Both the position numbers and the translations under genes were made by a program. From contig NZ_VKHR01000007.1 in the NCBI RefSeq assembly GCF_009663145.1, forward strand, positions 1-64,000: a stretch of DNA of 64,000 nucleotides, written 5' to 3'. Shown piece by piece: positions 5,477-30,809 of this stretch. The first letter of the stretch is position 1. Each line of letters opens with the position of its first letter. Source of the DNA: Shewanella sp. TC10 (GTDB lineage Bacteria; Pseudomonadota; Gammaproteobacteria; Enterobacterales; Shewanellaceae). The notes under the pieces were generated by a model. The model was not told the DNA's origin. It ran no database searches and saw only the letters and a program-made list of their open reading frames with translations.

Positions 5477-7027
5477 ATGAAACATCAGTTCGCCCATGTC
5501 ATAACGCAAAAACAATCATTAGCGTATCACGCTGATCCATTGAGCCTTTATCAGCATGTCACCGCTAATGCGCCACATACAATGTTGCTTGAATCTGCTG
5601 AGATAGAAAGTAAAGACCATTTAAAAAGCATCGTACTGACCCACGCGGCGATGATGGTGAGATGTGATGGTTACAAGCTGACTTTCTCAGCCCTCACTGA
5701 CAATGGTGCTAGCTTACTTTCACCCATTAGTGACTTCTTCAAATCAAGTGAGCAGCAACTGCAAGATAATGTATTAGTCATTAATCTTGCTAAAGCCAAG
5801 CAGCTACAAGATGAAGATGCGCGTTTAAAGTCCACATCACCGCTTGATGGTTTAAGAATGTTTGTACAACACATTCAAACTGATCAAAAAGATGCCTTCG
5901 AAGATTTGTTTTTAGGCGGTGTGCTAGCGTATGACTTAATTGATACTGTAGAACCATTACCAGAAGTGCCTAACGCTGATAATGATTGTCCTGATTACTT
6001 ATTTTACCTCGCTGAAACCTTGATTCTTGTTGACCACCAACAACAGCAAGCTGAAATCATTACCCATCAGTTTTCTACTGACGCACCGTTTGCAGAAACA
6101 CTGACTAAACGAGTCATAGATGTTAAACAGCAATGCCAAACATTAGCACCCGTTAAGCCTTTAGTTACTGTGGATGCTGACACTCAAGTTAACATCAGCG
6201 ACGAAACCTTTAAACAAACAGTGGTTGATTTAAAAGAGCACATTGTTGCAGGTGATATTTTCCAAGTTGTGCCCTCAAGAAGTTTTAGCCTGCCATGCCC
6301 GAATACCTTAGGGGCTTATCGAGCATTACGCCTAACGAACCCAAGTCCATACATGTTTTACTTTCGCGGCCCTGATTTCACCTTATTTGGCGCATCACCT
6401 GAAAGTGCACTTAAATATGATGCTGCAAGCAATCAAGTTGAAGTGTACCCCATTGCAGGCACACGTCAGCGCGGTAAAACAGCCGATGGCATGATTGATT
6501 TTGACTTAGACAGCCGCATTGAACTTGAATTACGTCTTGATAAGAAAGAGTTGTCAGAGCATTTAATGCTGGTTGATTTAGCCCGTAACGACATTGCCCG
6601 TATTAGCCAAAGCGGAAGCCGTAAAGTGGCCGAACTTTTAAAAGTTGACCGCTACTCACACGTGATGCATTTAGTCAGTCGCGTTACAGGCCAATTGCGT
6701 GAAGACTTAGATGCACTGCATGCATATCAAGCCTGCATGAATATGGGCACCTTAGTTGGCGCACCTAAAGTCCGTGCTTCACAATTAGTTCGTGAGGCCG
6801 AACAAGCACGTCGTGGCAGTTATGGCGGCGCCGTCGGTTACGTTAACGGTTTAGGTGATATGGATACTTGTATCGTTATTCGCTCAGCATTCGTTAAAAA
6901 TGATGTGGCCTTTATTCAAGCTGGCGCTGGGGTGGTGTTTGATTCAGACCCACAAGCTGAAGCCGACGAAACCCGTCAAAAAGCCCAAGCGGTAATTTCT
7001 GCCATCAAAATGGGAGGTGGATTGTAA
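5477..7027 (+). CDS. trpE: Anthranilate synthase component I
   Basis: TrpE converts chorismate to anthranilate using ammonia from TrpG. The 516-residue protein has the N-terminal LLES motif (residues about 37-40), which in relatives forms the tryptophan feedback site. It also has the chorismate-binding C-terminal half with IAGTRQRG, DLARNDIAR, and GGAVGYVNGLGDMDTCIVIRSA near the end. It follows the attenuator and its TAA overlaps the trpG ATG by one base, so translation is probably coupled. The length and motifs are normal. Pabb and isochorismate synthase are excluded by LLES and by the operon. Confidence 0.97.
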   Translation: MKHQFAHVITQKQSLAYHADPLSLYQHVTANAPHTMLLESAEIESKDHLKSIVLTHAAMMVRCDGYKLTFSALTDNGASLLSPISDFFKSSEQQLQDNVLVINLAKAKQLQDEDARLKSTSPLDGLRMFVQHIQTDQKDAFEDLFLGGVLAYDLIDTVEPLPEVPNADNDCPDYLFYLAETLILVDHQQQQAEIITHQFSTDAPFAETLTKRVIDVKQQCQTLAPVKPLVTVDADTQVNISDETFKQTVVDLKEHIVAGDIFQVVPSRSFSLPCPNTLGAYRALRLTNPSPYMFYFRGPDFTLFGASPESALKYDAASNQVEVYPIAGTRQRGKTADGMIDFDLDSRIELELRLDKKELSEHLMLVDLARNDIARISQSGSRKVAELLKVDRYSHVMHLVSRVTGQLREDLDALHAYQACMNMGTLVGAPKVRASQLVREAEQARRGSYGGAVGYVNGLGDMDTCIVIRSAFVKNDVAFIQAGAGVVFDSDPQAEADETRQKAQAVISAIKMGGGL

Positions 7028-15598: not shown

Positions 15599-16522
15599 CT
15601 ATTGAAAAGTCACCGTATTAGATTCAAAACCTATTTTAGTATTTAATGATTTTAACTGGTTAAGCCCGATAATCCCGACGACTTGGTGATTGAAGCTATC
15701 GTTAACAATGACCGAATCGAGATCAGTAACAATAAAGCGGTTTTCAAATAGCGAAGCCTTACCATTAGACACCACAATAGAATCACTCATGCTAATGGGG
15801 ATCTGTTTGCCATTAATATCTTGGCCATAAGCATTAGGAATAAGTTCAGAAGCAATAGATAAGTCGACAGCATTCTTACGGTTAATTATCGAATATTGTG
15901 AGCCAGTATCTAAAATGAGTCCCACTTCCTGCTCGTTAATATTAACCACAACGTAAGGTATGCCAAAACCTGACGAAAATAAGCTGAGGTTATTCTTGGT
16001 TTCATCAAGGGTATATTGGGCCAGCAATTGAGTTTGTAGCTCAGAAAATTGTAGCCCTTTAGCGATTAATTGCAGCAGGTCAAAACCCAGCAAGCCTAAA
16101 TACTTTCGATTAATACCCGACAAATTATGAGTGTTTATATTAACGCTAGAGAGTTCATATCCTGATACGGTAAAGCCTGATAGCTGTATTTTCTCACTGA
16201 CCATCATCGCTTGCTCAGACCCAAAGCCATAGCCTTTTTCAACATTCAAAGAAGTATAATCATCAATACTGGATAAATACCTGCGGTCTAAAACAGAGCT
16301 TGAAGAGCCTGTATCTATAATCATCCGACCTGACAAAGCTTGAATCATCACATCCAAATGCAATTGACCATCTTCCGACTCAACTAGTGTTAAGTTTTGT
16401 TGTATTTGAGTCGCCCAAACTGTGGCCGTGTAGAAAAACAAACTAAGCAAAATAGCGCTTATTTTTATTACAAAAGGAATTTTTACTACAGAAGAAATAT
16501 TTGTAATTGAAGAATAGCCCAT
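15599..16522 (-). CDS. Two-lobed retropepsin/pepsin-like aspartic protease homologue
   Basis: This 307-residue protein begins with an uncleaved anchor or signal segment (KIPFVIKISAILLSLFFYTA). It then has two aspartyl-protease motifs in one chain: GRMIIDTGSSSSVLDRRYL near residue 70 and VGLILDTGSQYSIINRKN near residue 203. Each is followed by a hydrophobic-Gly segment (YLGLLGFDLLQLIA; QVVGIIGLNQL). Bacterial retropepsin-like proteins usually carry one DTG per chain, so this looks like a pseudo-dimer acting in the periplasm. It is a single gene with its own AAAGGA site. Substrate and activity are not known. Confidence 0.72.
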   Translation of the reverse strand: MGYSSITNISSVVKIPFVIKISAILLSLFFYTATVWATQIQQNLTLVESEDGQLHLDVMIQALSGRMIIDTGSSSSVLDRRYLSSIDDYTSLNVEKGYGFGSEQAMMVSEKIQLSGFTVSGYELSSVNINTHNLSGINRKYLGLLGFDLLQLIAKGLQFSELQTQLLAQYTLDETKNNLSLFSSGFGIPYVVVNINEQEVGLILDTGSQYSIINRKNAVDLSIASELIPNAYGQDINGKQIPISMSDSIVVSNGKASLFENRFIVTDLDSVIVNDSFNHQVVGIIGLNQLKSLNTKIGFESNTVTFQ

Positions 16523-16670
16523 AGCTTAAAAGTCCTTTTCAGTATCATAAATCTATCATGAATCTATCATTGCCTAAGATGTCACTCAGGCGGGCTTTGA
16601 CGATAACACTTATAGGCTACTTATTCTAAATATCGATGGAATGATGTTTTATCTTGGTTATTTGGGCGCG

Positions 16671-16747
16671 TAAACAACGCCAATAAATAATCTACACGGT
16701 AAAAGAATCTCAATCCCTGAATGCGTTGATTTATATGCCTTGCTAGC
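16671..16747 (-). other. Possible degenerate attC site
   Basis: Downstream of the RidA-family gene, the minus strand reads GCTAGCAAGGCATATAAAT...ATTTATTGGCGTTGTTTACG. It resembles the ends of the neighbouring attC sites (GCTAACAAGGC; TGGCGTTAT), but AAC has become AGC and the right core is GTTGTTT. The inner parts can still pair. It would mark the distal end of the cassette array. Confidence 0.4.
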
Positions 16748-16753
16748 TGTACT

Positions 16754-17101
16754 TTAGCGGACTGCGGTAACGGTAATTTCAATTAACACTTCACCTTCAA
16801 GATCTACACCCAAGCAGGCTCTTTGCGGCCAATCTTGAGGGTTATCACCAAACCAATCACACCATACAGAGTCCATCGCCTGCTTAGAGTTCATATCTGC
16901 AATAAAGACTTGAGCAGATACTATTCGAGTTTTATCGCTACCAAGCTCAACTAGATTATCTTGAATTGTATCTAACGTTAATTGGGTTTGCCCTTTAATA
17001 TCTAAAGAGGTATCTGACGACGTAGCTACCGTCCATACTAGATCTTTGTATGCAGACGACTTATTACGTCCATTATAAATACCGCGCTTTCGTTCAATCA
17101 A
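16754..17101 (-). CDS. RidA/YjgF-family protein, probable cassette gene
   Basis: The 115-residue product has the Rid fold: LVWTVATSSDTSLDIKGQTQLTLDTIQDNL, then IVSAQVFIADMNSKQAMDSVW, then PQRACLGVDLEGEVLIEITVTAV. Its Arg occupies the place of the catalytic Arg 105 of RidA. Canonical RidA hydrolyses reactive enamines from PLP enzymes; other Rid subgroups differ. TTG at 17101 is the only start after an upstream in-frame stop. It begins 15 bp after an attC and ends next to a degenerate attC-like sequence, in the same direction as the other cassettes. I read it as the last cassette, although a flanking chromosomal gene is possible. Confidence 0.75.
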   Translation of the reverse strand: MIERKRGIYNGRNKSSAYKDLVWTVATSSDTSLDIKGQTQLTLDTIQDNLVELGSDKTRIVSAQVFIADMNSKQAMDSVWCDWFGDNPQDWPQRACLGVDLEGEVLIEITVTAVR

Positions 17102-17116
17102 TTGATTACCCTATAC

Positions 17117-17214
17117 TTATTACGCCTAATTAACAGGTAAAAAAATAGTTGATTAAAATAAGCGAGGAAGGAGAAAAACCAACTATTTTTTACTGCTGGA
17201 TTGGCTTGTTATAT
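17117..17214 (-). other. attC site (after the lipoprotein cassette)
   Basis: On the minus strand it starts ATATAACAAGCCAATCCAGCAG, and AAAAAATAGTTG and CAACTATTTTTT form the arms of a long imperfect palindrome. It ends AGGCGTAATAA. The right core has GTA instead of GTT, so this site may be impaired for recombination. Confidence 0.75.
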
Positions 17215-17225
17215 GCTTGATTAGC

Positions 17226-17528
17226 TTAATTAAAATCCAAAGATGTACACAACACCCAGCCAACTTTTTTATTTGGTAGCCTTATATTGCATGCCCAATA
17301 ATCTTTCCCGTAAGTATCCCTGATAACTGTTATATCGGAGCCCTTCATTAAGTTATCGATAGGCTCAGGAATTGGCCGGTTTAAAACACCTTGAAGTGCT
17401 GCTTCTTGCTCAGTTAGAAATACCAAAACATTATCATCGCTTACTACAGCCGCTCTGTCATTTGTGCAGCCAGACAAGTGCAAGAAAAAGAATATAGCTA
17501 ATACTTTATACATACACACAAGTCTCAT
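17226..17528 (-). CDS. Cassette gene: small lipoprotein with SH3-like segment
   Basis: From ATG at 17528 (or 17513) the product is about 96-100 residues. It has a lipoprotein signal peptide (YKVLAIFFFLHLSGC), then a short mature part. The end, GSDITVIRDTYGKDYWACNIRLP...GWVLCTSL, follows the pattern of bacterial SH3-like domains, with a Trp-Cys in mid-strand and a G-W-V before the last strand. The gene lies between two attC sites and begins immediately after the recombination core, the usual layout of a gene cassette. An upstream extension to 17546 would run into attC and is not accepted. Function unknown. Confidence 0.7.
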   Translation of the reverse strand: MRLVCMYKVLAIFFFLHLSGCTNDRAAVVSDDNVLVFLTEQEAALQGVLNRPIPEPIDNLMKGSDITVIRDTYGKDYWACNIRLPNKKVGWVLCTSLDFN

Positions 17529-17532
17529 AGGC

Positions 17533-17630
17533 ATATAACGCCTCAAACACCGGCTTGGTGAAGTTGGCGGCTTTTTTGGAACAAAAAGGGTGATAGCTTT
17601 TCCAAGTCCGCGTGCTTTGACTTGTTAACC
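17533..17630 (-). other. attC site (after the SMI1/KNR4 cassette)
   Basis: Minus strand: GGTTAACAAGTCAAAGCACGCGGACTTGG...GCCGCCAACTTCACC...TTTGAGGCGTTATAT. Outer arms (CAAAGC...GTTTG; CGCGGACTTGG...CCAAGCCGG) pair imperfectly, and the TAA stop of the gene lies inside the left core. Confidence 0.85.
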
Positions 17631-18047
17631 GTTGCTTGGCACCAAACCATTTAATAACCACTCTTCCAGTGAAGAAGCCAATTGATAAACTTCACCATCT
17701 GCTTCCCATTCTATAATTATTTTTCCTTCAGGATCTATTGCGATTGGGCTTCCAGAGCCGTCCCAGCCAATGATAAAGCACTTGCCAATAGTCCAACCGT
17801 TTTCAATAGCGCACTCTTCATCAAATTTAGTGTGAGTTGAATGCAATTCATCGATGGAATCGACCCATTCTGAACCTATGATTCCTCCTCCGCAGTTTAA
17901 GAGAAACCATTTATAGTCTTCTGGCATCGCTCGACATACGTCCTCGAAGTCTTCGATCTGCTCGTCACTTGCTGGAGGATAAGAAACACCCGGCTCTCTA
18001 GCTTTCCAGAGTTCGAGAATTTTTACCTTAGATTTTTCGTTGATCAT
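17625..18047 (-). CDS. Cassette gene: SMI1/KNR4 (SUKH) family protein
   Basis: The 140-residue protein matches the SUKH superfamily: YPPASDEQIEDFEDVCRAMPEDYKWFLLNCGGG near residues 22-52, the GWTIGKCFIIGWDGSGSPIAIDPEGKIIIEW core, then a C-terminal SLEEWLLN. Many SUKH proteins are immunity proteins to nuclease and other contact-dependent toxins, and they occur often in integron cassettes. No toxin gene is visible beside it, so an orphan immunity or anti-phage role is inference. It starts 9 bp after an attC core, and its stop lies in the next one. Confidence 0.85.
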   Translation of the reverse strand: MINEKSKVKILELWKAREPGVSYPPASDEQIEDFEDVCRAMPEDYKWFLLNCGGGIIGSEWVDSIDELHSTHTKFDEECAIENGWTIGKCFIIGWDGSGSPIAIDPEGKIIIEWEADGEVYQLASSLEEWLLNGLVPSNG

Positions 18048-18055
18048 AAATTCAC

Positions 18056-18175
18056 GGTTAACGCCGTTATAAAAGGCCGGAGTTGCGTTGGTGGTTTTGT
18101 GCTATTAAAGCACAAAACGAGCGACGCAACGGAGGTCCAGCCCGGGACGGGCGATTTTTGATAACTTTGTTATGC
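18056..18175 (-). other. attC site (after the band-7-like cassette)
   Basis: Minus strand begins GCATAACAAAGTTATC and ends TTATAACGGCGTTAACC. The inner arms CGTTGCGTCGCTCGTTTTGTGC and GCACAAAACCACCAACGCAAC form a long palindrome. At 120 bp it is the longest of the set. Confidence 0.85.
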
Positions 18176-18176
18176 A

Positions 18177-18647
18177 TTATTTGCCAGCTTTGCCCGCCTC
18201 CAAAATAGGTAGACCTGCTTCAGTTGGAATATAGATGCGCTCCCCATTACCATCCTGCAACCCCTTTATCCAAATGTATCGAAGATATTCTTCGTTGTTT
18301 TTTAGCGACTCACCAATAATTCGATTGGCTTCGGCGGCGGCTTTTGCTCGCTCGATATCTGCAGCACCTTCGGCTTTAGCACGAACTATTTTAGCCTTAC
18401 CTTCAGCTTCGGCTAGCGTAACTTTGGCCTTAGCTTGCATTAAAGCAGCCTGCTCTCTTGCTTTAGCTTCCTCTATTAAGATCTGCTTCGACCACTCTGC
18501 TTCTTTTAAAGCTGCGCGACCATTTAACTCTTGCTTATAGACGTTATATTTAGGCCACGCCCAAAGGGCAACGAATATCAACATTATAAAAGCGAAGAAT
18601 AAAAACACTACTGACCCTAAAGCTAAGGCTTGTTTATTTTGATACAC
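18177..18647 (-). CDS. Cassette gene: membrane protein with band-7-like Ala/Lys/Glu coiled coil
   Basis: GTG at 18647 follows AAGGAGAAATAG closely. The 156-residue product has one N-terminal membrane helix (residues about 8-32), then a long charged helix of Glu-Ala-Lys-Ala heptads (EAKAREQAALMQAKAKVTLAEAEGKAKIVRAKAEGAADIERAK). This is like the C-terminal part of prohibitin/HflC-type SPFH proteins but without an SPFH core domain. It ends with a small globular tail (ERIYIPTEAGLPIL). It is flanked by attC sites. Whether it caps or interferes with host SPFH assemblies is speculation. Confidence 0.72.
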   Translation of the reverse strand: MYQNKQALALGSVVFLFFAFIMLIFVALWAWPKYNVYKQELNGRAALKEAEWSKQILIEEAKAREQAALMQAKAKVTLAEAEGKAKIVRAKAEGAADIERAKAAAEANRIIGESLKNNEEYLRYIWIKGLQDGNGERIYIPTEAGLPILEAGKAGK

Positions 18648-18663
18648 CTATTTCTCCTTTGAT

Positions 18664-18763
18664 GCATAACGCCCCAATAAGGGGAAATTTATAGTTGGCT
18701 AAAATATTGAGCGAAGCGAAAAAAGCCAACTGTAAATTTTCCCGCTTGATTGGCTTGTTATAT
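18664..18763 (-). other. attC site (after the 18768-19058 cassette)
   Basis: Minus strand: ATATAACAAGCCAATCAAGCGGG...TTTCCCCTTATTGGGGCGTTATGC. The arms AAATTTACAGTTGGCT and AGCCAACTATAAATTT pair well. Both core sites (ATATAAC and GTTATGC) are intact. Confidence 0.9.
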
Positions 18764-18767
18764 GCTT

Positions 18768-19058
18768 TTACAGACGATCCATCTGGCTTCGCCAGTGACC
18801 GATTAAAGCCCACCAAATAACTTCAATATACTCTGGAGTTTCATGTTCAAATGCAACCTCAGGCCAAATATCGAGAAATGAGCCCATACCGCCACCTTTA
18901 AACATTTTTAGACGAGATAAAACTATTTTCTTATCGTCTCTCTCAAGCAACTCAGCAATTTCATTTAAACGAGAAACCCAACCGGGTGGACAATGATGTT
19001 CAGCGCAAAATTTTGCTAAAGCTTTAGTTGTTTGGATTTGACCTTTATCGCCGACCAC
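18768..19058 (-). CDS. Cassette gene: unknown 96-residue protein
   Basis: I chose the GTG at 19058 because AAGGAG lies 5 bases upstream, just after the attC core; the longer frame to 19139 would read through the recombination site. The protein (VVGDKGQIQTTKALAKFCAEHHCPP...) is acidic-helical, with two Cys near residues 17 and 22 and a Trp-rich C terminus (EVIWWALIGHWRSQMDRL). I recognise no family. Position between two attC sites and codon use unlike core genes fit a mobile cassette. Confidence 0.65.
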   Translation of the reverse strand: MVGDKGQIQTTKALAKFCAEHHCPPGWVSRLNEIAELLERDDKKIVLSRLKMFKGGGMGSFLDIWPEVAFEHETPEYIEVIWWALIGHWRSQMDRL

Positions 19059-19072
19059 GACTTCTCCTTGGC

Positions 19073-19174
19073 ATATAACGCCACAATAAGCGGCCAGATA
19101 ATGGTTGGTTAAACTTGTTGAGGAACGAAACACAACCAACCGTTAGAGGTCCGCTCTTAATTGCCTTGTTAGCA
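19073..19174 (-). other. attC site (after the first cassette)
   Basis: Minus strand: GCTAACAAGGCAATTAAGAGCGGACC...AACCAACC...GGCCGCTTATTGTGGCGTTATAT. Arms AACGGTTGGTTGTG and TTAACCAACCATTAT pair. The stop codon of the first cassette gene lies in the left core. Confidence 0.9.
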
Positions 19175-19495
19175 GTACTTTGCCATATGGCTGTCAAATT
19201 GCTCTGCTAGTTCTAAATACTCATCAACCCAGCCATTTTCTATTGCTATTTCTTGTAATGGTGCTGTTGGTAAGAACAAGTAATTGAGTTTACTTACATT
19301 TACTTTGCCCGAACTCTTTAGAAAGTGTAATTGCTTATTTATCAATTGTACGGTTTCTTCAACTTCCATATCTGACCATATAGAGTCTTCCGACTTTGCG
19401 AGGTACGATAAAACTTGTTCCAATATTTGAGTTAATGGAACCCTAGCATCTCGTCTAATTTTTCGTTTAAATATCAGATTCCAGAGAAAATTCAT
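19169..19495 (-). CDS. First cassette gene: unknown 108-residue protein
   Basis: The ATG at 19495 begins 8 bp after a GTTAGCA core on the minus strand, so this is the cassette nearest the presumed attI end. The protein (MNFLWNLIFKRKIRRDARVPL...) has a basic amphipathic N terminus. The body is acidic and helical (ILEQVLSYLAKSEDSIWSDMEVEETVQLINKQLHFL), and it ends AEQFDSHMAKYC. No family is recognised. Being first, it would be best placed for expression from an upstream cassette promoter, if one exists. Confidence 0.65.
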   Translation of the reverse strand: MNFLWNLIFKRKIRRDARVPLTQILEQVLSYLAKSEDSIWSDMEVEETVQLINKQLHFLKSSGKVNVSKLNYLFLPTAPLQEIAIENGWVDEYLELAEQFDSHMAKYC

Positions 19496-19502
19496 CTTGT
19501 AC

Positions 19503-19887
19503 TGCTAACAGCTTATTAGCGAGAATTCCGATAAACACCCGTAGGCTACTTACCAAAACTCAATCACTTTCCAGCTTAATTTATTAATAATTTTAATAAC
19601 TTAACAGCCATCAAAATTTAAATCAATCGACTAAATAGTGGATAAACCGAGAATTAAGATAACCGAGAGTTATTTGGGGTCGTTATGTAAATATCCATAT
19701 TAAAAAAGTTATTTATTTTCATAAACTTAAGGCGTAATGGTAATAGAAGGTGAGCATTTTCTTGTTTACATAGCGAGAAGCAAAGTTTGCATTTATGTGA
19801 TAAAGGTATGCATTTGATAATATGGTGAAAAGCAGTAGATTCTGACAATATCTAGGTAACTTAAATTACCAAGTTCGTTGCTCATTT
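19503..19887 (-). other. Cassette-array upstream end: GTTAGCA core, no integrase found
   Basis: The minus strand shows GCTGTTAGCAGTAC at 19499-19512, a recombination-type core, but no matching left core of an attC close by; it could be an attI end. An integron integrase would be expected on the plus strand here, divergent from the cassettes. All plus-strand frames are short and broken. A partial direct repeat, CGAGAATTnnGATAA, occurs near 19520 and 19648. A candidate promoter (TTGATG ... ATTATT) faces the cassettes around 19590-19620. Confidence 0.4.
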
Positions 19888-19943
19888 CCACCTATATACT
19901 CCTACCTATTCATTCCCACCTATTTATTTCCATCTATTCATTT
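19888..19943. repeat. 14-bp tandem repeat, 4 copies
   Basis: CCACCTATATACTC, CTACCTATTCATTC, CCACCTATTTATTT and CCATCTATTCATTT follow one another between the cassette array and the oxidoreductase operon. Confidence 0.88.
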
Positions 19944-19945
19944 CA

Positions 19946-19981
19946 AGAAAAATGCCCAAGCTATAACCTAGCTTGAGCATT
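19946..19981 (-). terminator. Terminator of the xdhC-iorB operon
   Basis: On the minus strand AATGCTCAAGCT pairs with AGCTTGGGCATT (one wobble) around AGGTTAT, then TTTTTC follows. It lies 23 bp after the large-subunit stop. Confidence 0.82.
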
Positions 19982-20003
19982 GTTTTCACTTTAAATGTCA
20001 GAA

Positions 20004-22265
20004 CTAGATTTTCAGCACTTTACTCAGTGGTAAATCGCGATAACGTTTACCTGAGGCTGCAAATATGGCATTAGTTAAACTCGGTGCCACGGGTGGCACG
20101 CCGGGTTCACCCACTCCTGCAGGTTTTGCATCTGACTCGACAATAATGGTTTCGATTTCAGGTGACTGGCCGATGCGTAGCAGTGGATAGTTATGGAAAT
20201 TAGATTGCTCGACTTTACCGTCTTTATAACTAATTTCGCCCATCATCGCCAAACTTAAGCCGAATATGATGGCGCCTTCGGTTTGCGAATGTACCCTATC
20301 AGGGTTGACCACAGTGCCTGCGTCAATCGCCGCAATGCTTTTTAATACAGTCAACTTATCGCCGTCCATTTCAACTAATGTTGCTACTGCAACATAGCTA
20401 ACAAAGCTGCGATGTACTGCAAAGCCCCAACCTTGATTGGCTTGGATTTTAGGCTGTTTTTCCATGGCCTTTTCAACTGCATCAATCACGCTTAAATAGC
20501 GGCCGATATCAATAGGGAAATCCTCTAAGGTTTCACCATAGTTACCGTATTTCACCACTTGATTTTCAAGCTTTTCATGTCGCGGCTTACCTAGCAGCTC
20601 ACGCCACATGCTAATACAGGGTTTACCTGCATTTACTGCAAGTTCATCGACAAAGCTGCCGACACCAAAGCCATGCTGAATATTACACACTGAGCGCATC
20701 CAACCAATACGAGAATGAGCAGTGGCTTTAACAGACTCCAACTGAATTTGGCTTAAGTTAAACGGCATATCAGAAAAGCCAAGGTCTAACTCCCCTGCTG
20801 ATGGCATATCAACGCCTTCGGCAAAAGTTGAGCTTATTGATGGAAAACCACTGCGGGCAAGTAACGCCGTAGGCGCTTTATTGCCATCTAATTTAGCTTG
20901 GTAATGCTGCGCACTAATAGCATGGTAGTAACCGTTTTGAATTTCATCTTCACGGCTCCATAGCAGTTTGACTGGTTTAGCGATTTTTTGTGATAGCCAC
21001 GCCGCCTCGGCGCTAAAGTCAGGTTTTGACTTGCGACCAAAACCACCGCCTAGCAAGGTGACATTCACTTTCACTTGCTCATCTTTTAAGCCTAAAACCC
21101 CAGCAACATTTTTCTGAGTGCTTTGCGGTGTTTGAGTTGATGCCCAAATCTCGCAGCCGTCTTTAGTCACTGATGCAGCTGCCGCTGGCGGCTCCATCAT
21201 GGCATGGGTCAAATACGGCACAGTATAAACTGCTGATAAACTATTATCGTCACTCCAATCACTGACTGATTCACCTAATTGACGAATAACCGTTCCTGAC
21301 TCACCGACGCGTTTAACAAGCGCTGCTAAATCGGTATCCGAGTCATATTGACTGTTTGCAGAGTCTGTCCAGGTGATTTTTAATGCTTTACGGCCTTGCA
21401 GCGCACTCCAGCTATTAGTTGCTATAACCGCAACCCCACCAAGGGGCTGAAATAACGGCGCACCTTTTGATATAGGAATTTGAATTACATCCAATACCCC
21501 TGCCACTTTGCGAGCAGCGCTATCATCTAAAGTCGCTACATCACTGCCCAATACTGGCGGTCGAGTAATTGAGGCGTGTACCATACCTGCTACTTTTACA
21601 TCAAAACCATATTCAGCTTTGCCGTTAAGCATATCGTCCATATCTACGATGGTGGGCGATTTTCCGATATGAGTAAATTTCGACGCTGGCTTTAACACCA
21701 CACTATCAAGTGCTGGTGTTGTAAGTGCTGAGGCTGCAATGGCAAGCTCGCCAAATGACAGGCTTTTACCATTAGTTTTATGATGAATCTTACCTGCTTT
21801 GGCATACACATCTGCTGGCGTCACTTGCCACTGGTTAGCGGCTGCTTGCTCTAGCATGCTCCTTGCAGTAGCGCCCATTTGACGCATTTTTTGATAATGC
21901 TTACGGATACTGCGGCTACCATCGGTGTTTTGACTGCCATATTGCTCGTCAGCCAAACCTTGAACCACAACGATTTGATCCCATTCAGCTTCTAGCTCAT
22001 CGGCTAAGACTTGTGGCACACCTGTTCTAATGCCTTGACCCATTTCAGAGCGGTGACAGGTTAAATACACCTTATTGTCTTCACCAATCGCGATAAAGAT
22101 GTTCAGCTGCGCTTGCTTACCTTGAGCAATAGCCCCTTCTTGAGCAATAGCCATAGGACTCCACGCTAAGCCTGATGCGCCAAGTGCTAAGCCTCCGCCC
22201 ACTGCGCCAAACAGTTTTAGCACGTTACGGCGGCTAATGTTTTCAACTGCGGTAAATGTGGTCAT
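20004..22265 (-). CDS. iorB: Isoquinoline 1-oxidoreductase-type molybdopterin large subunit
   Basis: The 753-residue protein starts with a twin-arginine leader (ISRRNVLKLFGAVGGGLALGASGLA), so the folded enzyme is exported. It belongs to the xanthine dehydrogenase superfamily, IorB/CoxL-like branch. Visible are RSEMGQGIRTGVPQVLADELEA, the cofactor-loop region LLGGGFGRK, GFGVGSFVDELA and a C-terminal GVGEPGVPPVAPSLTNAIFAASGKR, where Glu is the expected catalytic base. It pairs with the 2Fe-2S subunit just upstream (2-bp gap). The substrate of these periplasmic hydroxylases (N-heterocycles or aldehydes) cannot be read from sequence. Confidence 0.9.
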   Translation of the reverse strand: MTTFTAVENISRRNVLKLFGAVGGGLALGASGLAWSPMAIAQEGAIAQGKQAQLNIFIAIGEDNKVYLTCHRSEMGQGIRTGVPQVLADELEAEWDQIVVVQGLADEQYGSQNTDGSRSIRKHYQKMRQMGATARSMLEQAAANQWQVTPADVYAKAGKIHHKTNGKSLSFGELAIAASALTTPALDSVVLKPASKFTHIGKSPTIVDMDDMLNGKAEYGFDVKVAGMVHASITRPPVLGSDVATLDDSAARKVAGVLDVIQIPISKGAPLFQPLGGVAVIATNSWSALQGRKALKITWTDSANSQYDSDTDLAALVKRVGESGTVIRQLGESVSDWSDDNSLSAVYTVPYLTHAMMEPPAAAASVTKDGCEIWASTQTPQSTQKNVAGVLGLKDEQVKVNVTLLGGGFGRKSKPDFSAEAAWLSQKIAKPVKLLWSREDEIQNGYYHAISAQHYQAKLDGNKAPTALLARSGFPSISSTFAEGVDMPSAGELDLGFSDMPFNLSQIQLESVKATAHSRIGWMRSVCNIQHGFGVGSFVDELAVNAGKPCISMWRELLGKPRHEKLENQVVKYGNYGETLEDFPIDIGRYLSVIDAVEKAMEKQPKIQANQGWGFAVHRSFVSYVAVATLVEMDGDKLTVLKSIAAIDAGTVVNPDRVHSQTEGAIIFGLSLAMMGEISYKDGKVEQSNFHNYPLLRIGQSPEIETIIVESDAKPAGVGEPGVPPVAPSLTNAIFAASGKRYRDLPLSKVLKI

Positions 22266-29802: not shown

Positions 29803-30690
29803 CTAGTTGCCTTTAGTTGAATTAGTTTCGCGAATATCCATTATTGGCATCACGCCTTCGCCCATCATGGTAGTTGGCAACTTACCATCCCACGCTTGTG
29901 CTTCGGTAAGTGTCACAATTAACGGGTTGTTTTTAAGTGCCTTAGCTTTTGCTTCAATCGCTTGAGCTTCAGCCTTACCTCTTAACAGAATCGACTGCGC
30001 TTCTGCTTCAGCAATTTTTAATATCCCTTTTGCCTTAGCGTCTGCCGTGTTTACTGCACGTAAAGCTTCTAGACGCTGCCTTTCAAGCTTATGCTCTTCT
30101 GCCGCAGCTAAGTTCTTCTCAGTTTGTTTAATTTCAATAGAGTTAATGTACTTTTGCGGCAAGATAATATTTTCAATTTGAATGTTATCTACAACCACAG
30201 GGAAGCTTGCCATCTCTTCAGACAATCGACGTTCAATACCTTGAATCGCACTGGCTCTGTCTTGGATTAATTGCTCTGCTTCAAACTGTGGGATGGTATC
30301 TTTAGTCGCTGAGCGAAAACGAGGGTCTAAAATACGTTGCTCAAATTGACTTAAGCCGCCGTAGCTTTTAAACAAATCTAATGCCGCTTCTTTATTCACT
30401 GTCCAGTTAACTGACACTTCAATAGTCACTGGCATTTGCTCTTTGGTGCTTGAAGCCATTTTCTCTGCATTCTTACGGGTTCTGACTTCAATCACTTCTA
30501 CTGTTTCAATAAAAGGAATTTTGAAATGTAGACCTGGGTTTTGTTGATCTTTGGCTTCGCCAAAACGTTTAACGACACCAACATGACCTTCAATAACGAT
30601 GTAGTAAGAGTTAAATACGGCGACAATTAATAGCAGTAAAGGTATCGCCTTAAATAGCGATGATGGGCTGATAACATCCTTGATATTCAT
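29803..30690 (-). CDS. SPFH/band-7 (prohibitin/HflC-like) membrane protein
   Basis: The ATG at 30690 (AGGAAG upstream) gives 295 residues, beginning MNIKDVISPSSLFKAIPLLLL with one membrane helix. The SPFH domain follows (YYIVIEGHVGVVKRFGEAKDQQNPGLHFKIPFIETVEVIEVRT, about residues 28-70). Next come a helical arm rich in Ala-Glu-Lys (LEALRAVNTADAKAKGILKIAEAEAQ) and a C-terminal NPLIVTLTEAQAWDGKLPTTMM segment typical of prohibitin-like members. Such proteins assemble into membrane microdomains and modulate FtsH or related proteases. No NfeD partner is adjacent. Confidence 0.88.
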   Translation of the reverse strand: MNIKDVISPSSLFKAIPLLLLIVAVFNSYYIVIEGHVGVVKRFGEAKDQQNPGLHFKIPFIETVEVIEVRTRKNAEKMASSTKEQMPVTIEVSVNWTVNKEAALDLFKSYGGLSQFEQRILDPRFRSATKDTIPQFEAEQLIQDRASAIQGIERRLSEEMASFPVVVDNIQIENIILPQKYINSIEIKQTEKNLAAAEEHKLERQRLEALRAVNTADAKAKGILKIAEAEAQSILLRGKAEAQAIEAKAKALKNNPLIVTLTEAQAWDGKLPTTMMGEGVMPIMDIRETNSTKGN

Positions 30691-30809
30691 AAACTTCCTA
30701 ATGATTTGCTTACTTAAATAAACTAAAGGCGCTAGATTACCTAAATCAAACAAAATCGCAACATGAAATCATAAGGACGAATTTATATTTACTTACTCAA
30801 GGGAGTGGT

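What the first reader, a model, noticed from the sequence alone, without database searches (positions are those of the whole stretch)
16671..19509. Integrase-less integron cassette array (CALIN) of five to six gene cassettes
Directly visible: short minus-strand genes alternate with 98-120 bp imperfect palindromes. The palindromes begin ATAACAAGCC, TAACAAGGC or similar and end GGCGTTATATGC or GGGGCGTTATGC. Gene stops fall in or next to the left core, and starts lie 8-15 bp after the right core. That is the gene-cassette/attC architecture. No integrase frame is found up to the oxidoreductase operon. Either the integrase is elsewhere and delivered these cassettes in trans, or it decayed.
Basis: partly seen in the sequence, partly recalled or inferred. 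Interest (0 to 1): 0.82.

Follow-up and report, generated by a model that had tools for sequence, protein, structure and literature searches.

The report
Integron cassette array with solo attI
A row of swappable bacterial gene cassettes sits here without the enzyme that moves them but behind its own docking site, and this genome carries about a dozen such docking sites scattered around, which suggests a spread-out version of the integron, the system bacteria use to collect new genes.

Summary
The array is real: five minus-strand attC sites (17116-19174) bound five cassettes; the model finds nothing else in 64 kb but a mirror hit. The left-most "core" (16671) is no attC by model or fold, so the sixth gene (RidA) is unsettled. 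No intI lies nearby; the only integron integrase gene found in the genome, on another contig, is broken.

The array starts exactly at an attI-type site (19509-19798), homologous to the intI-attI region of complete Shewanella integrons and present 8 times in this genome, each copy heading a cassette array without intI. With other attI types, 12 of 15 integrase-less attC loci here, and 28 of 37 over six genomes, begin at such a "solo attI".

Cassettes differ at orthologous loci. One cassette recurs at 99% in another array; another sits at the crossover of two different solo-attI types in two species. Best reading: dispersed attI platforms filled in trans. The enzyme involved is inferred. Shewanella CALINs are published; I found no report of solo-attI heads.

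The parts
19509..19798 (-). solo attI platform (P-type), without intI; crossover G|TT between 19508 and 19509; this copy has no exact LexA box
   Evidence: homologous to other copies and to the intI-attI stretch of intact integrons (81% over 296 bp to the G104 copy that keeps an intI remnant, which is itself 70% alike over 346 bp to the G020 intI-linked region); no CTGTN8ACAG in this copy
19079..19508 (-). cassette 1: unknown protein of 108 aa (ORF 19169-19495) and its attC
   Evidence: ORF, no Pfam hit, bounded by the attI and attC crossovers
19072..19174 (-). attC of cassette 1
   Evidence: 80.6 bits, fold z -2.5
18670..19078 (-). cassette 2: weak DUF6966-like protein, below the Pfam cut-off (listed ORF 18768-19139; the real start probably lies inside the cassette)
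18663..18763 (-). attC of cassette 2
   Evidence: 103.6 bits, fold z -4.4
18062..18669 (-). cassette 3: membrane-anchored coiled-coil protein of 156 aa (ORF 18177-18647), no Pfam hit
   Evidence: the description is read from the sequence
18055..18175 (-). attC of cassette 3 (weak model score, strong hairpin)
   Evidence: 24.8 bits, E 0.0015, fold z -5.5
17539..18061 (-). cassette 4: SUKH-1 (SMI1/KNR4) family protein (ORF 17625-18047); the same cassette lies in the C51 array of this genome
   Evidence: Pfam PF09346 E 2.5e-13; 99.1% over 530 bp, window 17536-18065
17532..17630 (-). attC of cassette 4
   Evidence: 60.2 bits, fold z -3.7
17123..17538 (-). cassette 5: small lipoprotein-like protein (ORF 17226-17546 as listed)
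   Evidence: no Pfam hit; lipoprotein character read from the sequence
17116..17214 (-). attC of cassette 5, with degenerate R'
   Evidence: 54.4 bits, fold z -1.4
16754..17101 (-). RidA-family gene: terminal cassette with lost attC, or resident gene
   Evidence: PF01042 E 1.1e-14; shared with S. electrodiphila at this locus, not found at the G104 locus; no attC after it

Best explanation
A five-cassette integron array whose head is a solo attI: an attI platform that has lost its integrase gene. The genome carries at least 12 array-heading platforms of this sort (8 of the P-type seen here, 3 like the attI of its resident chromosomal integron, 1 of a third type), each with its own cassettes. 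Cassettes are inserted at and removed from these platforms by an integron integrase encoded elsewhere, which acts in trans on attI and on folded attC hairpins, so that one integrase can serve many sites. Shown: attC sites, attI homology that ends at the crossover, copy number, cassette sharing between arrays, cassette turnover at orthologous loci, and one cassette sitting at the exact crossover of two different solo-attI types in two species. Inferred: which integrase does it, that it acts from another locus, and that the platforms are kept by selection. In this strain the only integron integrase gene found is broken, so the arrays are probably static now.
For: attC. Eight P-type copies in the genome, each heading an array with at least one attC. 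Homology to the intI-attI region of intact integrons and a 35-residue intI remnant beside one G104 copy. 28 of 37 integrase-less loci in six genomes start at a solo attI; 0 of 44 control tiles do. Cassette sharing with boundaries at the crossovers: window 17536-18065 with the C51 array at 99.1%; the same first cassette, 98.6% over 559 bp starting 9 bp before and ending at the next crossover, behind an S-type solo attI in G049 and a P-type solo attI in G025. Turnover at two loci with shared head and shared far flank. Footprint of conserved blocks in 13 intI-less copies; 9 of these 13 share one intI-less junction.
Against: No recombination was observed. The only intI found in G000 is broken and no P-type intI was found in G000, G028 or G104, so the enzyme is unknown. 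9 of 37 loci show no attI. Several S-type solo attI have no attC within 1.5 kb (L165, L167, L173, L175). The window copy has no exact LexA box and two of the four AATTCTCG repeats. The sigma-70 scan found no more promoter-like sites in 16500-20000 than shuffles give, and none in the conserved 190 bp. How platforms spread is unexplained. Block conservation could partly reflect gene conversion.
Confidence: 0.66

Rival explanations
1. Relic explanation: these are old complete integrons that were copied around and lost intI; the arrays are dead remnants and the attI is only a leftover.
For: A 35-residue intI remnant beside one G104 copy. The intI of G000 is itself broken. Some S-type copies have no attC nearby.
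Against: Nine of 13 P-type copies share one intI-less junction, so they multiplied or diverged after intI was lost. The attI blocks are 0.84-1.00 identical while the spacer between them is 0.64-0.67. First cassettes changed after G000 and S. electrodiphila split, and one cassette of this array is 99% identical in another array.
Confidence: 0.2
2. Off-target insertion: an integrase placed cassettes at chance attG-type sites, and no attI is involved.
For: Proposed for CALINs in general (PMC8618304, passages). It could hold for the 9 of 37 loci without a recognised attI.
Against: At 28 of 37 loci the DNA upstream of the crossover is homologous to attI regions, here over 290 bp.
Confidence: 0.05
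3. Spread by homologous recombination: repeats beside the platforms and the attC sites themselves shuffled the arrays without an integrase.
For: Nine of 13 P-type copies adjoin a high-copy interspersed repeat (62 matches in the genome). At the window locus the tail shared with S. electrodiphila begins near the 5' end of an attC and not at its crossover (17211).
Against: Two shared cassettes end within a few bp of the crossovers on both sides and have different neighbours. The window copy is not beside the repeat. It may explain how platforms spread, but hardly the cassette exchange.
Confidence: 0.08

Closest known systems
CALIN / SALIN (attC clusters or single attC lacking an integron integrase), reported for Shewanella in PMC9229058
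   Same: attC cassettes far from any intI; common in Shewanella (section 3.4 read)
   Different: In that section nothing is said of attI at these loci; here the array starts at an attI homologous to those of complete integrons
Complete chromosomal integron (intI-attI-cassettes), e.g. the intI-linked relatives in G020 and G103
   Same: the same attI region and the same kind of attC sites
   Different: no intI beside this array
attG insertion (integrase-mediated insertion at non-attI, non-attC sites; mentioned in passages of PMC12444791)
   Same: cassettes at places other than the resident attI
   Different: the target here has the full homology of an attI
Delta-attI-type cassettes of mobile integrons (PMC12901181)
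   Same: pieces of attI away from intI
   Different: those keep 14-18 nt of attI1 (one complete attI1 noted) in place of attC downstream of a gene (passages); here about 95-320 bp of attI region lie upstream of whole arrays
Class 1 integrons with truncated intI1 (recalled, no call)
   Same: attI and cassettes kept, integrase lost
   Different: those are single recent truncations by insertion sequences; here many dispersed copies share one intI-less junction

Membership tests
[quoted passage not shown]
   five attC on one strand
CALIN | no integron integrase gene nearby | tested here: met
   no TIGR02249 match on contig C118 in the whole-genome search
Complete integron | intI gene next to attI | tested here: not met
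   no intI on this contig
Complete integron | attI site at the head of the array | tested here: met
   homology ending at the crossover
Complete integron | attC hairpins that fold on the bottom strand | tested here: met
   four of five clearly, the fifth weakly
Complete integron | cassette promoter Pc near attI | tested here: inconclusive
   sigma-70 scan: no site in the conserved 190 bp, total not above shuffles
attG (off-target) insertion | target without attI homology | tested here: not met
   290 bp of attI-region homology
In-trans integron platform (proposed) | recombination at solo attI by an integrase encoded elsewhere | not testable with these tools
   indirect only: cassette sharing and turnover

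The most novel reading that the evidence does not exclude
A distributed integron: in a clade of Shewanella one integrase serves a dozen or more solo attI platforms scattered over the chromosome, kept by selection as landing and expression sites, so that most 'integrase-less' cassette clusters there are working outposts of an integron and not debris or random insertions.
Probability: 0.4. Interest if true: 0.82.

Novelty: new variant of a known kind. Interest (0 to 1): 0.64.

Why it matters
How integrase-less cassette clusters arise is open: off-target insertion, loss of intI and rearrangement have been proposed (PMC8618304, passages). IntegronFinder 2.0 does not detect attI outside class 1 integrons (PMC9024848, passages), so solo attI heads would go unseen. 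If most such clusters in a genus start at a solo attI, the number of integron insertion sites per genome rises from one to a dozen or more, several cassettes can hold the attI-near position at once, and the origin question can be tested by recombination assay and by strain comparison.

Tried and rejected
Left flank as a second, degenerate attI: the 19-bp similarity between 16605 and 19534 was tested by local alignment and is not significant (22 of 1000 shuffles and 14 of 377 window tiles score as high).

16671-16750 as a sixth attC: no model hit, fold z 0.02.

Platform as part of a larger repeat: the shared DNA from about -440 to -1030 belongs to a generic repeat with 62 matches in G000, most away from the platforms (40 of 65 candidates scored). 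Loci without the insert exist for C51 (G031) and for the G104 4331k array (G031 and G038), but their edges have diverged and give no clean unit.

Platform on plasmids, phages or IMG/VR contigs: no match (exact 20-base pattern). In 394 genomes of the order (two candidates scored per genome) the matches outside the genus were short: G202 has two exact 25-bp attI ends and G426 a diverged match in two pieces.

First hairpin scan: 6 false hits in 108 kb at its working threshold, and it missed some sites; the covariance model replaced it.

Literature: six searches. One search returned mostly unrelated papers because 'atti' begins other words. Of the papers opened, I saw passages of five and one whole section.

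Limits of the tally of 37: one search scored 150 of 1752 first-look candidates in G000; one search scored 150 per genome and its listing was cut, so weaker or unlisted loci are missing. The attC model was trained on sites downstream of platforms and may favour such arrays. G028 was left out of the tally (draft with many contig-end arrays); resident integrons with intI or its pieces (G000 C79, G104, G020, G023 4146k, G049 2804k and 3802k) were left out too. Long loci were counted once (G049 1488-1500k and G025 2008-2012k hold more than one S-type attI). The G104 2973k row and the G049 1499k row match references made from their own copies; both also resemble intI-linked references. Controls: 0 of 44 tile-strands with the first reference set and 0 of 44 with the enlarged set. 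In 13 further loci tested on both strands with the enlarged set at E up to 0.01 there was one weak 32-bp match (E 0.009, L009) and the known A-type copy in L112.
Full report
WHAT IS THERE. On the minus strand, between a molybdopterin oxidoreductase gene (20004-22265) and an aspartyl-protease-like gene (15599-16522), six short ORFs alternate with hairpin sites. A covariance model built from 21 Shewanella sites, three of them from this window, finds five attC sites in the window, all in this array and on the minus strand; the only other match up to E 1 is the mirror of one of them. Folds of the bottom strand agree for four and weakly for the fifth.

THE HEAD OF THE ARRAY. The DNA right of the first cassette matches seven other places in the same genome and several in close relatives. 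Aligned, the copies of G000, G028 and G104 share a sequence that ends at TAATAAGCTG (TAATACGCTG in the two G104 copies) just before TT; beyond that point they are unrelated, except that two G028 copies share their next 330 bp with each other. The shared DNA is homologous to the stretch between intI and the first cassette of complete integrons: in G020, G103 and G074 it lies directly beside an intI over the family cut-off with a LexA box, and in G049 beside an altered intI with an insertion in between. One G104 copy still carries a 35-residue remnant of that intI (77% identity, E 8e-12); no copy searched in G000 or G028 gave an intI match. So the head is an attI region that lost its integrase gene: a solo attI. 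Matches to the 188-base consensus occur in 32 of 129 genomes of the genus, many of them partial.

HOW MANY. The attC model finds 44 sites in this genome in 16 loci: the resident integron on C79 (7 sites) and 15 integrase-less loci (37 sites). All 8 P-type solo attI head an array (26 sites). Testing the other loci against attI regions of resident integrons gives S-type solo attI (like C79) at C2, C87 and C23 and an A-type at C16; C99, C56 and C97 show none. That makes 12 of 15 loci and 32 of 37 sites. In five closed genomes the score is G104 5 of 6, G023 3 of 6, G049 2 of 4, G025 4 of 4 and G020 0 of 2; with S-type solo copies added as references G049 becomes 3 of 4 and G020 1 of 2, total 28 of 37. 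Control tiles of the window gave no hit (0 of 44 with either reference set). The attI-to-first-attC distance is 291 to 1535 bp with one exception of 2396, and 464 and 751 bp for the two added. A genome-wide search with the S-type attI finds further copies, and four of the twelve fetched (L165, L167, L173, L175) have no attC within 1.5 kb.

SIGNS OF RECOMBINATION. The SUKH cassette of this array recurs at 99.1% over 530 bp in the C51 array, ending within 4 bp of both crossovers, with other neighbours. Two stretches of the resident integron's array recur in the two C39 arrays at 96% (567 bp) and 93% (495 bp). In two other species the same first cassette, 98.6% over 559 bp, starts at the crossover of an S-type solo attI (G049) and of a P-type solo attI (G025) and ends at the next crossover, with unrelated DNA before and after: two attI types received one cassette at the exact point. 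At the window locus S. electrodiphila has the same attI head (96%) and the same tail from 17211 on (95%) but different cassettes; the tail begins near the 5' end of attC 17116-17214 and not at its crossover. At C39a both the attI side and the far flank match while the cassettes do not. In G104 the protease flank is shared, no RidA match lies at the locus, and the cassettes differ. In S. olleyana a deletion removed the array and part of the protease gene.

SIGNS OF CONSTRAINT. Among 13 intI-less P-type copies (8 of G000, 5 of G028), mean pairwise identity is 1.00 over the last 20 bp, 0.84-0.98 from -180 to -20, only 0.64-0.67 from -240 to -180, 0.83-0.92 from -280 to -240, 0.77 around the LexA box (-320 to -300), and 0.40 just after the crossover. 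An exact LexA box is present in 4 of the 8 G000 copies and 4 of the 5 G028 copies, not in the window copy. Nine of the 13 share one junction 10-13 bp (counted by eye) beyond the LexA box position with a generic repeat, so intI was lost before these copies diverged. Conserved blocks beside a diverged spacer look like selection on a working site; gene conversion is not excluded. S-type copies in five genomes are conserved for about 95 bp up to the crossover and not beyond.

WHO ACTS. The only integron integrase gene found here is on C79, in two frames, with an out-of-frame deletion of about 83 bp relative to G122. G028 has two intIs over the family cut-off and G104 one, with 43-53% identity to the P-type integrase. 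The attI of the G028 C13 and G104 integrons share AATAAGCTG|TTA with the solo attI of G000 and G028; that of the second G028 intI does not show it. I therefore propose action in trans by an integrase of another type, or by a P-type integrase since lost. This is inference.

KNOWN OR NEW. CALINs and single attC are published for Shewanella (PMC9229058, section 3.4 read). Proposed origins are off-target insertion, intI loss or rearrangement (PMC8618304, passages). IntegronFinder 2.0 does not detect attI outside class 1 (PMC9024848, passages). In Xanthomonas CALINs sit at seven distinct loci (PMC12444791, passages). I saw no report of solo attI heads in the searches, which cover open-licence papers only. 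I rate it a new variant of a known kind.

Noticed in passing
L039:1980-2560 and 62 matches over G000: A high-copy interspersed repeat of Shewanella; copies often carry CCAAAGCTTGTTAGC at an edge, and nine of 13 P-type platforms adjoin it. Its nature is unknown.
   Followed up: partly
L040 (G000 C39), far end of the array (cassette-orientation positions about 5850-5950 of the reverse complement): An 8-bp tandem repeat TAACGCTG, over ten copies, abuts the flank after the array; G028 has about one unit at the same place.
   Followed up: no
window 19882-19937: Three copies of an imperfect 14-bp tandem unit (TCATTTCCACCTAT-like) right of the platform.
   Followed up: no
window 18177-18647 and 29803-30753: By eye, the cassette 3 protein has an alanine-rich coiled coil that resembles the C-terminal part of the prohibitin-like protein encoded at 29803-30753.
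   Followed up: no
P-type attI, e.g. L039: Up to four AATTCTCG repeats (-251, -164, -148, -19) and a TCGTTATGTAAA / TTTACATAACGA inverted repeat in the attI region; candidate integrase-binding repeats (the inverted repeat was seen by eye).
   Followed up: partly
L096 (G122 C76): The S-type intI of G122 has its N-terminal part replaced by unrelated sequence that includes a short attC-like hairpin (seen by eye).
   Followed up: no
G202 C94:84607 and C63:116170: In another family of the order, two exact 25-bp copies of the P-type attI end at different places; solo attI may exist outside Shewanella.
   Followed up: no
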